A stretch of DNA of 64,000 nt from Calonectria ilicicola (Eukaryota; Ascomycota; Sordariomycetes; Hypocreales; Nectriaceae): assembly GCA_020809705.1 (NCBI GenBank), contig CP085827.1, positions 2,728,001 to 2,792,000 on the forward strand. Reading direction: 5' to 3'. The translations under genes were made by a program, and so were the position numbers. Below the pieces are notes generated by a model, which made no database searches, had not been told where the DNA came from, and was given only the letters and a program-made list of their open reading frames with translations. The stretch's first letter is position 1. Each line of letters begins with the position of its first letter. This document shows positions 39,372 through 46,930 of this stretch, in pieces.

Positions 39372-39450
39372 ATGTTCCATCCGACTAGTATCATCATCAC
39401 GCTATTTCTAGCCGTTTGTGCTGCTGCCTTCCCAACATCACAGCCCCCTG

Positions 39451-39455
39451 TGAAT
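39451..39455. repeat. target-site duplication, left copy (TGAAT)
   Basis: Five bases immediately before the left LTR, identical to 46732-46736. Five-base duplications are typical of LTR retrotransposon integrases. Confidence 0.92.
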
Positions 39456-39618
39456 TGATACGGAAATGGTGTCAACACATATGGAACCCTGTAAGTGTGT
39501 GCCTTAGGCACCTTTGGAAGGCATATATAAGCCTGTTATTAAGGTAGATAGAGAAGAAGATATTAATCTTTCTATTATATATTATTAAGATTTTTATTAT
39601 TTTAATTTTATTATATTA
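39456..39618. repeat. left LTR (163 bp)
   Basis: Begins TGATACGG and aligns base for base, with no gap, to 46569-46731. All the differences I checked by eye along most of its length are C/T or G/A. The outer part (to about 39560) keeps its G and C; the inner 50 bases are converted to A/T. Confidence 0.93.
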
Positions 39619-42600
39619 TATAATAATAATTATTTTTTTTAAAATTAATATTATAATATTATTTTAAAAAAAAGAAAATCTTTTTTAATAAATTTAATTT
39701 TTAAAAAAGATAAAAATAAAAAGGTAAAATTTATAAAAGATAATATCTTTTAATTTTAATTAAAGCTTTAAAAAGTTAAAATTATTAATTAAAGAATATT
39801 TATTATAAAATCTAATAAATAATATAAAAATTAATTTTTAAATAAAAAGAAAATAAGAAAAATTATAAAATAGAAAATTTATTATAATAAATTAATATTT
39901 AAAAAATAATTAATAAAGATTTTTAATAAATTTATTTTTTAAAATATTATCTTTATTTAATAAATAAAAAATTATATAAATAATATTATTAAATAAAATT
40001 ATTAAAATATTATTATTTTAATTAATATATCTTAAGCTAAGATTTAATATTTAAATATTTTAGTAATTTAAAGGTAAGAAATTATTAAATATATTATATT
40101 TTTAAATTTCTTTAGATTTCTTATAATCCCTTTTAATAAAATATTATAATTTAATAATATATTTATAAATATTATTATATTTAATTTACTTATTTTAAAA
40201 AACCTAATCTTTATAAATAAATAAGAACCTAAGTAATAAAGTAATCTTTTTAATTTAAAAAAGGTTAATTATTTTATTTAATTAATTTAATTAATTTAGG
40301 AGAGAAGTTTAATATACTTTAACTTAAATATCTTTAGTAGTAAAAGATTATAAATCTTAGTTTATTTAAGTAAATATTATTATAAATTAATATAATTATA
40401 AATTAAATATAATAATAATAATTATTTAAATAATTTATTATCTTTTTTTAATTTATTAATTTTTTAAATATAAATTTTAATTTATTATAATATATTTAAT
40501 TTTATATATTATTTTTAATAAGTAATTAAATAAATAAAAGATAAATTAAATATAATATTATTAAAATCTTTAATTTAGATTTTAAAAATTTTAAAAAGTA
40601 AGAATTTATTATTATATAAAGTAAATAATTTTATATTAATATTAACCTTTTTTATATATTTTTTAAAATTTTTAAATAATTTAATAAAAATTCTTTTTAA
40701 AAGTATTATCTTATAATACTTTAAAATATAGTTTATAAGTAATTAATAAAAGAGCTTAATAATAAAAAATAAATTAAAATTATAAAAAGCTTTATCTTTT
40801 ACTTTTATTAAGATTTTATAAGATAATTTAAGCTTTAAAAGTTAGATTTATTAAAAGAATATATAATTAAAAAATATATACTTAACTTTATTTAATAAAA
40901 TATATCTCTTTCTTTTTAAATATAATATAAAATTAAGCTTATTAAATAAGCTAAAATATAGATAGATAAAGAGATTTTTAAAATAATCTTCTTATTTATT
41001 AATTATAAGATTATATATTTATTATAAATTCTAATATTTAAAATAACTATTATTAAATTTATTTAAAATTATAAAAATTAAAAAAAAATATTAATATAAT
41101 AATATTTAAAAATAAATAAATAAACTTTTAATAAAAATATTAAAATAATTAATAATTATATTATAAAAGAAAATATAATAATATTAATAGATAAAAATAC
41201 TATATTTATTAAAATAATAAATAATCAAATAATTACAATTATAATTACTATTATAAGAATAAATAATACAAAGATCAGAATTAATCCTAGAAATAATAAT
41301 ACCTTATTAAAGATAGCTTATATAAAAATAAGAAGGTAAAACCTAAAGGTAAATACCTTACTAAGGAAGAACTTACTAACTAAGAACAAGAACCTAGCCT
41401 TAAGGAGAGTAAATTAAGCTCTAATAAGTCTATTAATTTTAAAGTTTTTTAAAATAAATATTATATATTATTATAAGGATAGATTTTATAAAGTGCTTAG
41501 GGAAAGAATAAATATACTTAATATAAATATACTTTTAATTTCTTAATTCTTTTTAAAGAATATATATATATTAATATTTATATAAAATCTATAAAATTAA
41601 TTAAAGAAGTATTTATAATCTTTTTTAAAGAAGTATATTATAAAAGTTATAAGCAAAATTTCCTTTTTATAATAAATTTTTTATATATTTTAATAAAAAG
41701 TATTAAGGATTTAAAAAAGAAATTTAAATAATTATTATTTATAAATAAATTATTTATTTTATATAAAAAGGTAAAAGTAAGTAATATATATTATATTTAT
41801 ATATATATTAAGATTAAGATTAATAAAAATAGTAAAAAAGAAAAGAAAATCTATATTAATATAAAATATAGAAATCTTATAATTAATAAGAAATTATTAT
41901 AATTATTTAATTATATTATAAAGTAAAGAATTTTAATATTTATTAATAATATTAATAATATAATCTAAATTAATAAATAAATAATCTTTAATATATTTAT
42001 TAAAGAAATAAATATTAGTAAAATTATTAAATAGATAATAAAATTTATAATTAATATATAAGTATAAGATAGATTTAAATTAAAGGCTCTTCTTAGGAAT
42101 GATTTCTTAAACCCTTATAAAATTAATATTATTATATTATAAAAATAGTTTTATTATAATACTTTAAATAATTTCTATATCCTATATTATATTAATTACT
42201 TAGGGAAGAATATAATTTAATAAATTAAAGTAGCTAAAGATATAATTATTTTTATAAAGTAAATATATATTATATTAATAATTTAAAAAAGATTTTTAAA
42301 GATTAAATATTTATATTTTATATTTTTACTAAATATATAATAAATATAATAATTAATTATAATATTTTAATTAAGATTATAATTATTAATAACTCTAAAA
42401 AGGCTATTAAGCTCTATTAAAAATAAAAGCTTAATAATATTATTAAATATAAGAAGGAATAGGTATTTATAATTACTATATAAATCTAAGTACTTATAAT
42501 TATAATTATAATTTATATAATATTTAAAAGTAAAGCTCTAAATATAATATCTAAAGAAAAAAATATATCTTTATTATAAATAAATATTATAGGATTTAAG

Positions 42601-45600
42601 TTTATACTTACCCTAATTAATATAACAATTATTACTAATAATTATAAAATAAACTAAAATTAACTAATAATAATTAATATAATTATAAAATTATTTAATA
42701 ATACTATTTTTATTAATATATATATAATTAAGCTACCTTAAAAGTAAAAAAGAAAATTATTTTTAAAAATAATAATATATTTTATATAAAAATTAAAAAT
42801 TATTATTATTAAAATAAATAATAAAATTATTAAGAACTTTACCTTAATACCTAAAAAATAACTAAGTATTCTATATTAAATATATATTTAGTAAATACTT
42901 AATCTTCTTAAAATTATTATAATAAAAGAAATATATATTTATAATTAGAATAATTATTTTATTAAAAAAATTAAAATTTTAATAAAAAAGTATATTTAAT
43001 TATAAAATAATATAAACTTAATAAAAATATTAAAAAATAAAAAGTTATAAGTATTATTTATTAATAATTAATATAAGTAAACCATCTTCTAGCACCCCTA
43101 CCTATCTAATCTAAAAGATTAATAATTTATTAATATAAAATTTAATAAACTCTATTAATAAGATAGATTAAAATAGATTAAAAAACTAACCCTATTTATA
43201 ATATTTATTTTTATTATATAAAAAATAATTAATAAAAAATTAAAAGGAAGAATAATAGTAAACTTATATACTCTTAATAAGATTATTATCTTAGATAATT
43301 ATTTATTATTAAAATAGAAAGATATTATCTAGGTACTTTAAAAGATCTAATATATTATAATTATTAATATATTATTTTTTTTTAATTTAAAGTAAGATTA
43401 AAGTATTATAATTATTTTATAATAATTAATTATTAAAGATTAAAGTAATTAATAATTACTTTAATAGGATTCTAGAACTCTCTAATATATATATAATAAT
43501 ATATAGATTATTTATTATATTTATATTATAAATTTTATAAAGCTTTTATTAATAATATTATAATTTTCTTTAAAATAAAAAAGAGTATTTTAAATATTTA
43601 TAGAAATTATTTAAACTTTTTAAAAAAAGAATATTATTATCTTTTTTAAAAAAAGTTAGATTAAATATTTTAATATATAAATACTTAGCTTTTAAGTAAA
43701 TACTTTTAATTTAATTATTATAGAAAAGTAGATTATATTATTTATAAAATTAAAGTTTCTAATCTAATTATTAGCTTTAAAATAATATATTAAAACTATA
43801 GGATATATTAAATATCTTATTTTATATTATATTTAATTTATAAAGCTTTTATAAAAATATAAGATTATATTATTAAAAGTAAGATATAAATAAGATAAAA
43901 TAATTAATAAAAATCTTAATAAATAAAAGGCTTATATTTATATAATATACTATAATCCTATAAAAGAAAAAAGATTTATATTTAAAGTAATTTAATATAA
44001 AGTAGTTAGTATAAGAATACTCTTTTACCTTAAATAAAATAAGAAATTATACCTTTAAATAAATATAAGTATTTAATAAGATTTTAAAATAATACTTTTT
44101 TATTTTAAGAATAATTATAAATAAAATAGGATATTATATATCCTAGTAATAATAATAAAATCTATTTACTTTTTAAATTATACTTTTAATTTAATAAAAA
44201 GAAATTATAATTTATTAAAATTAAAAATAATATATTTAATATAAATAATTAAAAGATTATATATATATATTTAATTATTAATATACCTAATAATTACCTT
44301 TATAAACTACTTTATAATAAAATAAATTATAAAAAAAACTATACTTATTATATCTAATATAAATTAAATAAATTATAAATTAATAATTATTTTAATCTAT
44401 TTATCAAAATATAAACTTAATATATACTACCTTTTAAAAAAGAAAAACTTTATTCTAAATATATTAAATTATTTAATAGCCCTAGAGATCAATAAGAACT
44501 AAGTATAATTATAATCTGATTATATAGTTCTAAATAATGTGCTAGTAGTAATAAAAGCTTTAATAATAAAGAAATCTAAGAGAAAGTTTTAAAAAAATAT
44601 TTTAATAATATATATTATATAAAGATTATTAATATAATAATAAAAAAAAGATTTTAGATTTTTTAATATTTAATAATAAAAATATTATAAATATTTTAAA
44701 ATATAAAATATATTTTAAATTATATAAAGGACTTTTATATTATTATAGTTAATTTAAATATTATAAGTTTTATATTTTTTACTTTATAATTAATAAATTT
44801 CTAAAAATAGTTTATAATAATTAATATTACTTTAATAAAAAAAGAATATTAAAAAAGTTTTTTAGTCTTTATATTAAAAACTTAATATAATAGGCTAAAA
44901 AGTATATTTATAAATATAAAATATATTATTGTAAGTAAATTAACTATTAATAAGTTATTAAGAATTACTTATTAAATAGATCTTTAATTTTATCTATATA
45001 TATAATAATAATAAATTTTATTATTAAACTTTTATTAACATTAATAAAAGAATTATTATAAATATTAAAAGAATAAAATATTTATAATTAATTAATAATA
45101 ATTATTTATATAATAAATAAAAAATATTTATTAATTTTAAAATTTATTAAATATATAAGTAAAAAGTAAATAATTATATTAGCTTAATAATTTATACTTT
45201 TTAATTAAGATATATTAAAAATTATTATTTTAGATTATAATAATAAATTTAATTTAAAATTTTAAAAAGATTTATAAATAAATTTTAAAATAAAAATAAT
45301 AATAATAATAATATATTATTTATAAATTAATAAATTAATAAAAAGATATAATTAAATAATTAAAATAATAATATACTTTTATTATATAAAGTATTTAATA
45401 AAAGATTAATTATATATTCTATTTATATTATAATAAAATCTAAATAAAATATTTAATATTATAATTAAAGCCTTTATATATAAATTTATTTATAAAATTA
45501 CTTTTTAAAATCTAATAAAATTAATATAATTAGTAATAGAAAATATAGACCTATTATTTTTAAAAGAAATTATTTAAAAGAAAGTATAATTAATTATAGA

Positions 45601-46568
45601 TTTTATAATAATTAAAGTAAAAAGATAGTATAATATTAAGTATTAATTAATTTAATTTAAGATTAATAATAAGCTCTACTTATAATTATATTATAAATAT
45701 TATTTATTAAATAAGTTATTATATAAATAATTATAATAATAATTAGGTCTATTTATAATCAAGAGAATAATTAATAATCTAATATATAAGCTAGATTTAT
45801 TAAATAATATAAAGATATATTTAGTAATCTTATATTAATAGCTTATATTAGCTTATATTAATAACTTTTAATTAAAAAATTTTAAATTAATTTTTAAAGA
45901 TAATAGAATTAATTAATATAAAATAAATAAAATCTTTAATTAAAAAAATTAATATATTAATAAATATAATTTAATAATTATAAAAAAATATTAAATAAAT
46001 TAAAAAAATTATAAATACTATTAGATTATATAGATCTAAATAAAGAATATTAATTTAAATTTAATTATAAAATTTTAATATTAATAAATTTTTAAAAATA
46101 ATATTCTTTAATTAATCTAATAACTTTAAGATTATAATAAAAAATAAATTAAAATCTTTATTATTACTTCTAATTTAAAAAAATTATTAAATAAAAAAAA
46201 TTAAACTAATTTTATAAAATCCTCTTATTAATAATTAAAAAAGAAAATAAAATTATCTTATTATTAAAATAATAATCTAAAAGATTTTATAAATATTTTA
46301 AATTAGATTAATAAAAGAATAATATAAGCCTAAATCCTTTTAAATAATAATTAAAATAATTATATAAAACTTTTTTATTAATTATTAATTTAAAATCTAA
46401 TTTAAATTCTTTTATAAAAAGATTTAAAAAATAATCTTTTAAAAATAAAATTATTATTTAAATAAATTAAAAAAAAATTATATAAAATATAAAAATTTAA
46501 AATAAAAAAATATATATAATATTTTAATTATTAAAAATAATAAATAATTTCTTAAATATACTAAAATA

Positions 46569-46731
46569 TAATATAAAAATAATATTAATATATATAAAAT
46601 CTTATAAATATATATCTTAAATACCCTTAAAAAACATATATAAACCTATTACTAAGATAGATAGAGAAGAAGATATTAACCTTCCTACTACATATCATTA
46701 AGACCCCTACTGTTCTAATCCTACCGTATCA
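46569..46731. repeat. right LTR (163 bp)
   Basis: Ends CCGTATCA, the inverse of the left LTR's TGATACGG start. Here the inner (5') half is converted to A/T and the outer (3') half keeps its C and G, a mirror image of the left LTR. Confidence 0.93.
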
Positions 46732-46736
46732 TGAAT
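46732..46736. repeat. target-site duplication, right copy (TGAAT)
   Basis: Directly follows the right LTR and matches 39451-39455. Confidence 0.92.
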
Positions 46737-46930
46737 GAAGAGCCCCCCCTCTGGATGAACACACCTGCGTGTCAGAAGGAACTTTTAGTCATCCTACCGC
46801 TTGCGATAAGTTTATTATATGCGTGGGCGGCGTGGTAGGTATCCAGACAATAGTGCAGCAATGTCCCGCTGGTACTTTGTTCGACAAAAACATCAAAACA
46901 TGCAATTATGAAAATCTAGTGGATTGTTAA

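What the first reader, a model, noticed from the sequence alone, without database searches (positions are those of the whole stretch)
39372..46930. A chitin-binding (Avr4-like CBM14) effector-type gene cut in two by a retrotransposon
Seen: the sequence just left of the element is an ATG plus signal peptide, and the sequence just right is an open frame with six Cys spaced C-x11-C-x5-C-x13-C-x12-C-x7-C and the stretch CPAGTLFDKNIKTCNYE. The break coincides exactly with the TGAAT target duplication. Known: small secreted CBM14 proteins such as Avr4 bind chitin and protect hyphae from chitinase. Inference: this lineage lost one such protein by insertion, which might have altered host recognition or chitin protection. 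The gene is invisible to an ordinary gene finder because its halves lie 7.3 kb apart.
Basis: partly seen in the sequence, partly recalled or inferred. Interest (0 to 1): 0.87.

Follow-up and report, generated by a model that had tools for sequence, protein, structure and literature searches.

The report
Chitin-binding gene split by dead retrotransposon
A fungus carries the two separated remains of a small secreted chitin-binding-type protein gene, interrupted by a heavily mutated mobile element; this is a well-preserved case of an ordinary kind of gene loss, and any role in plant infection is unproven.

Summary
A 7,276-bp LTR element (39456-46731) with TGAAT target duplications lies between a 28-codon signal-peptide-like piece (39372-39455) and a 63-residue CBM_14 frame (46739-46930; Pfam E 2.8e-13). 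An intact relative on contig C5 (97 aa) starts like the left piece and ends like the right one, so both pieces belong to one gene type. The element family shows 5-bp duplications in 8 of 8 paired copies and 6 of 6 solo LTRs tested. Its inside has 8.7% G+C and a strong RIP signature; the flanks have none.

Corrections: (1) The CBM_14 frame starts at 46739, not 46737, and is out of phase with the left piece. As assembled, the site would not code across even without the element: a second lesion, earlier or later, or an assembly error. (2) It is a CBM_14 protein but not shown to be Avr4-like: 6 cysteines against 8, and Thr and Asn at Avr4's Trp100 and Asp102. (3) Effector role, host recognition and adaptive loss are untested; CBM_14 proteins also occur in a non-pathogen. 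A real but ordinary gene loss.

The parts
39372..39455 (+). 5' piece of the gene: ATG plus signal-peptide-like 28 codons
   Evidence: 12 of 26 identities to the N-terminus of the intact C5 relative, pair E 2e-7; its score of 67 is reached by 0 of 5000 plain and 0 of 5000 block shuffles and by 1 of 187 hydrophobic 28-mers after ATG in the window, by its score the piece itself
39451..39455 (.). target-site duplication TGAAT, left copy
39456..39618 (.). left LTR, 163 bp, begins TGATAC; its first three bases (TGA) end the left reading frame
   Evidence: 23 of 163 changes from an intact solo LTR, all C>T or G>A, 0 in the outer 40 bp
39619..46568 (.). internal part of the element, 8.7% G+C, no recognisable domain
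   Evidence: CpA 0.09, TpG 0.05, CpG 0.00 of expectation; no Pfam match in six frames with X at stops
46569..46731 (.). right LTR, 163 bp, ends GTATCA
   Evidence: 33 of 163 changes from an intact solo LTR, all C>T or G>A, 0 in the outer 43 bp
46732..46736 (.). target-site duplication TGAAT, right copy
46739..46930 (+). 3' piece of the gene: CBM_14 domain (Pfam part 46766-46927), stop 46928-46930; no Met in the frame; not in phase with the left piece

Best explanation
The locus held a small single-exon gene for a secreted protein (signal peptide plus one CBM_14 domain). An LTR element of a family with more than 40 LTR places in this genome inserted just after the signal-peptide codons, making a 5-bp duplication. 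RIP then turned the element's inside into about 9% G+C sequence but stopped inside its own LTRs and left the gene pieces unmutated. Shown: both pieces, the family of the right one, the duplication, the RIP-type changes and the intact relative. Inferred: that the gene is dead (the left frame ends at the first codon of the element, the right frame has no Met, and the pieces are out of phase). The order of insertion and phase lesion is not resolved. The former function is inferred to be chitin binding in the fungal wall or apoplast, from the domain alone.
For: CBM_14 E 2.8e-13. C5 relative with the same two-part build, CBM_14 E 4.1e-8, matching the left piece and the right piece separately; shuffle and window controls. 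Each flank has one match in the genome, its own place (simple repeats are skipped by that search). LTR searches: 40 of 40 scored matches, from 72 and 74 candidates. Matching 5-bp duplications in 8 of 8 paired complete copies and 6 of 6 solo LTRs. All 56 changes of the window's two LTRs against an intact solo LTR are C>T or G>A. CpA in the left and right flank is 1.09 and 1.08 of expectation, no RIP.
Against: The two pieces are not in one phase, so part of the history is missing. No reverse transcriptase or other domain was found in the copy, so 'retrotransposon' rests on LTRs and duplications. No relative with an uninterrupted site could be examined. No protein-database homologue was found for the right piece or for the C5 relative, so orthology to any named gene is unknown.
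Confidence: 0.9

Rival explanations
1. The gene was already a pseudogene, out of phase, when the element landed, so the insertion caused no loss of function.
For: The halves are out of phase in the assembly as given.
Against: The right frame is otherwise fully open, with six Cys and a full-length Pfam match, so decay was slight; the phase lesion could equally be later.
Confidence: 0.3
2. The phase offset is an assembly error and the insertion alone inactivated a working gene.
For: One small offset in an otherwise open frame with a full domain; the assembly is highly contiguous (69.93 Mb in 12 contigs), which suggests long reads, where small indel errors are common (recalled).
Against: No reads are available here; nothing in the sequence shows an error.
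Confidence: 0.33
3. The two pieces are unrelated: a chance hydrophobic ORF on the left and a CBM_14 remnant on the right.
For: Different reading phases; signal peptides share composition and can look alike.
Against: The left piece matches the start of the C5 CBM_14 gene, including the PTxQxP stretch after the hydrophobic core; 0 of 5000 composition shuffles and 0 of 5000 block shuffles reach its score, and the next best of 187 hydrophobic 28-mers in the window scores 39 against 67.
Confidence: 0.04
4. The element sits in an intron and the gene still works by splicing.
For: An intron would explain the phase offset.
Against: The C5 relative has one uninterrupted frame. The left piece has no GTRNGT donor. 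Only 29 bp lie between the right duplication and the first Cys codon, and the last GT of the left piece is 6 bp before the insertion, so an intron of usual size (recalled) would remove signal-peptide codons that match the relative.
Confidence: 0.03
5. Adaptive knock-out of an Avr4-type effector that escaped host recognition.
For: Transposon insertions in avirulence genes are on record: Avr2 of Cladosporium fulvum in three Japanese isolates (PMC4406682, passages read).
Against: Avr4 features tested are mostly not met; host and lifestyle unknown; CBM_14 proteins occur in the non-pathogen Pyronema confluens (PMC3778014, passages read); no population data.
Confidence: 0.06

Closest known systems
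CBM_14 (Pfam PF01607, chitin binding Peritrophin-A domain), small secreted fungal form
   Same: Full-length profile match, six Cys, short protein with signal peptide, like the 13 Pyronema confluens proteins, mostly 80-140 aa (PMC3778014, passages read)
   Different: Split by an element and out of phase
Avr4 of Cladosporium fulvum / Pseudocercospora (PDB 6bn0, 4z4a)
   Same: Same domain; weak sequence match of the right piece to 6bn0, E 0.0042; the C5 relative matches 4z4a at E 8.3e-8 and 6bn0 at E 3.1e-6
   Different: 6 instead of 8 Cys; Thr and Asn at Trp100 and Asp102; better-scoring solved chains are 8in3 (25 kDa polyphenol-binding protein, E 5.2e-9), 6g9c (chitinase, E 2.1e-6) and 2mfk (Blo 1 12, E 0.003), of animal origin as recalled; 4z4a is not among the right piece's matches
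Transposon insertion in the effector gene Avr2 of C. fulvum (PMC4406682, passages read)
   Same: Mobile element interrupts an effector gene
   Different: Other gene; there linked to a known resistance gene and to population data
RIP-mutated LTR retrotransposons of filamentous ascomycetes (recalled)
   Same: LTRs, 5-bp duplication, CpA/TpG depletion, C>T and G>A changes
   Different: Superfamily not determined for this copy

Membership tests
CBM_14 (PF01607) | Profile match over the curated cut-off | tested here: met
   50.2 bits against 22.1, profile 1-53/53
CBM_14 (PF01607) | Six conserved Cys | tested here: met
   Six Cys, C-x11-C-x5-C-x13-C-x12-C-x7-C
CBM_14 (PF01607) | Binds chitin | not testable with these tools
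   Inferred from the domain only
Avr4 effector family | Eight Cys in four disulfides (Cys40-70, 50-56, 64-109, 86-101; PMC6128652 passages) | tested here: not met
   The piece has six Cys; the C5 relative has eight
Avr4 effector family | Trp100 and Asp102, needed for (GlcNAc)6 binding (PMC6128652 passages) | tested here: not met
   Thr and Asn in the alignment to 6bn0. Not decisive for chitin binding: the CHIT1 domain also lacks both
Avr4 effector family | Pro87, Leu90 and Tyr103, aligned to the CHIT1 chitin-binding residues (PMC6128652 passage) | tested here: inconclusive
   Pro and Tyr kept, Leu90 is Thr
Avr4 effector family | Secreted during infection, protects hyphae from chitinase | not testable with these tools
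Intact gene | One reading phase from ATG to stop apart from the element | tested here: not met
   84 nt from ATG to the insertion, 29 nt from 46737 to the first Cys codon at 46766; the sum 113 is not a multiple of 3; the phase from 46737 gives no CBM_14
LTR retrotransposon | LTRs with TG...CA ends and a constant-length target duplication | tested here: met
   163-bp LTRs; 5-bp duplications in 8 of 8 paired copies and 6 of 6 solo LTRs tested
LTR retrotransposon | gag-pol domains | tested here: inconclusive
   None found in this RIP-mutated copy; none of the 150 scored RVT_1 places (of 283 candidates) or 18 RVT_2 places lies in it
RIP target | C>T/G>A changes, CpA/TpG depletion, high TpA/ApT ratio | tested here: met
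   Window LTRs 56 of 56 changes; element TpA/ApT 1.15 against 0.63-0.66 in the rest of the window

The most novel reading that the evidence does not exclude
The lineage lost a diverged, non-Avr4 secreted CBM_14 protein recently and adaptively by this insertion, and RIP edge-sparing keeps such host-gene remnants readable beside fully RIP-mutated elements, so fungal genomes hold a hidden record of effector-like gene losses at element borders.
Probability: 0.06. Interest if true: 0.6.

Novelty: new member of a known kind. Interest (0 to 1): 0.3.

Why it matters
It is a clean example of a secreted-protein gene lost, wholly or finally, to a mobile element, and easy for ordinary gene finding to miss because each piece is short. 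The pairing of intact solo LTRs with RIP-mutated full copies gives a natural control for where RIP stops. It would matter more if an uninterrupted allele segregates in a plant pathogen with a host-linked pattern.

Tried and rejected
Protein-database searches with the right piece and with the C5 relative found no candidate (2 of 3 searches used). NCBIfam gave nothing for the right piece; Pfam gave nothing for the left piece alone. Pfam on six frames of the element's inside, X at stops, gave nothing. Copia or Gypsy membership could not be assigned. Paper searches: 'CBM14' with 'retrotransposon' and 'effector' (5 papers, listing only) and 'Avr4' with 'transposon insertion' and 'chitin' (2 papers; passages read of one, PMC4406682) showed no description of this locus in what was seen; the library holds open-licence PMC papers only. 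Two searches on RIP (listings only) did not settle whether the edge effect seen here is in print. LTR divergence was not used to date the insertion, because RIP makes it meaningless. Structure prediction was not run, since Pfam already settles the domain.

Considered and rejected: chance hydrophobic ORF, intron insertion, duplicate of the flanks elsewhere in the genome.

Full report
What is there. The window lies at C3:2728001-2792000 of a 69.93-Mb, 12-contig genome held without a name. The RIP signature and gene content suggest a filamentous ascomycete (inference). At 39372-39455 an ATG opens 28 codons that look like a signal peptide (no predictor was run). The next codon, TGA, belongs to the element. 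At 46739-46927 a frame of 63 residues matches CBM_14 over the whole profile (E 2.8e-13, 50.2 bits, cut-off 22.1), ending in TAA at 46928-46930. Between the pieces lies an element of 7,276 bp with TGATAC...GTATCA ends and TGAAT on either side.

Do the pieces belong together? A six-frame search of the genome with CBM_14 finds two places (3 candidates, 3 scored): this one and C5:6277821-6277973 (exons split by introns could be missed). The C5 gene is one open frame of 97 aa with eight Cys, CBM_14 E 4.1e-8. The left piece, alone, matches its first 25 residues (12 of 26 identical, pair E 2e-7). The right piece, alone, matches its second half (12 of 45 identical, pair E 2e-7), although the genome-wide search with the right piece ranks that place only at E 0.247. 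As a control for signal-peptide composition, the left piece's score of 67 was reached by 0 of 5000 shuffles (best 45), 0 of 5000 shuffles within its first, middle and last parts (best 52), and 1 of 187 hydrophobic 28-mers after an ATG in the window; that one has the piece's own score and the next has 39. The right piece's score of 66 was reached by 0 of 2000 shuffles, best 55. Each flank has one match in the genome, its own place.

The phase problem. The left piece is 84 nt, ends on a codon boundary at 39455, and would continue at 46737. Read from 46737 the right side gives no CBM_14 and stops after 33 residues. The CBM_14 frame begins at 46739 and is preceded at once by TGA (46736-46738). So the locus as assembled carries a second defect besides the element, or an assembly error. 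An intron does not explain it well: the C5 gene has one uninterrupted frame, the left piece has no GTRNGT donor, and only 29 nt lie between the right duplication and the first Cys codon. The right frame contains no Met, so it cannot start at an ATG of its own. The flanks were not joined.

The element. LTR searches of the genome reach 40 scored matches out of 72 and 74 candidates. Of 24 LTR ends fetched, 16 form 8 pairs, this one included, chosen as neighbours on one strand; in 8 of 8 the 5 bp before and after agree. The other 8 ends had no fetched partner and were not tested. Six low-mutation matches were fetched, of 14 that are 99-100% identical to the LTR; they are solo LTRs, 163 bp, identical in 6 of 6, each with its own 5-bp duplication. 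Of 40 scored matches to that LTR, 9 are 100% identical and 5 are 99%. The family was therefore active recently on the scale of substitutions (inference; no rate was applied). The internal part has 8.7% G+C with CpA, TpG and CpG at 0.09, 0.05 and 0.00 of expectation, against 1.09 and 1.08 for CpA in the left and right flank. No domain was found in it, and none of the RVT_1 (150 of 283 candidates scored) or RVT_2 (18 of 18) places lies in it.

RIP stops inside the element. Against the intact solo LTR, the window's left LTR has 23 changes and the right LTR 33, all C>T or G>A. By LTR bins 1-40, 41-80, 81-120 and 121-163 the left has 0, 2, 6, 15 and the right 16, 14, 3, 0. In 11 left LTRs (12 fetched, L013 left out; the window's own included) the first bin has 0-3 changes and the last 12-16; in 12 right LTRs (the window's own included) the first bin has 8-16 and the last 0-4. 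In these 23 LTRs 5 changes are not of RIP type: 4 in the left set and 1 in the right set. The copies were chosen by likeness to this one, so they are biased towards its pattern. The same sequence is mutated when it lies inside and largely spared when it lies outside. This fits the gene pieces beside the element being unmutated.

Avr4 or not. The best solved-structure matches of the right piece are 8in3 (E 5.2e-9) and 6g9c (E 2.1e-6), of animal origin as recalled; CfAvr4 6bn0 follows in fourth place at E 0.0042. The piece has six Cys where CfAvr4 has four disulfides, and Thr and Asn where CfAvr4 has Trp100 and Asp102, whose replacement by Ala abolishes detectable (GlcNAc)6 binding (PMC6128652, passages read; alignment). 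The CHIT1 domain also lacks both and binds chitin through other residues (same paper), so this argues against Avr4 kinship, not against chitin binding. The C5 relative is nearer to Avr4: eight Cys, 4z4a E 8.3e-8, Asp kept, Trp100 replaced by Val. In Pyronema confluens, a non-pathogen, 13 CBM_14 proteins are predicted extracellular (PMC3778014, passages read), and none were detected in the plant pathogen Ramularia collo-cygni (PMC4979122, passages read). Presence and loss of CBM_14 genes therefore do not by themselves point to host interaction. The genome also has 19 LysM matches at E 0.001 or better, another family that binds chitin.

Verdict. A secreted CBM_14 gene lies in two pieces around a RIP-mutated LTR element: real and well supported. 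That the element killed it, rather than landing in a gene already out of phase, is open. The effector reading is a guess. Transposon insertion into an effector gene is on record (Avr2 in three C. fulvum isolates; PMC4406682, passages read), so the kind of event is known.

Noticed in passing
39456-39618 and 46569-46731; L007-L012, L014-L030: RIP fades towards the outer border of the element. In the window copy the outer 40 bp of both LTRs are unchanged; over 11 left and 12 right LTRs the outer bins carry 0-3 and 0-4 changes, while the same sequence at the inner position carries 8-16 and 12-16 (copies biased by the way they were found).
   Followed up: partly
L031-L036 (C4, C11, C3, C1, C8, C4): 163-bp solo LTRs of the same family escaped RIP and are identical in 6 of 6 fetched; 9 of 40 scored genome matches are 100% identical.
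   Followed up: partly
L002:1372-1665 (C5): Intact 97-aa signal peptide plus CBM_14 gene with eight Cys, nearer to Avr4 than the split gene.
   Followed up: partly
39456-46731: The element has 9.4% G+C in a window otherwise at 43-52% per 2-kb step; CpG is absent from its internal part.
   Followed up: no
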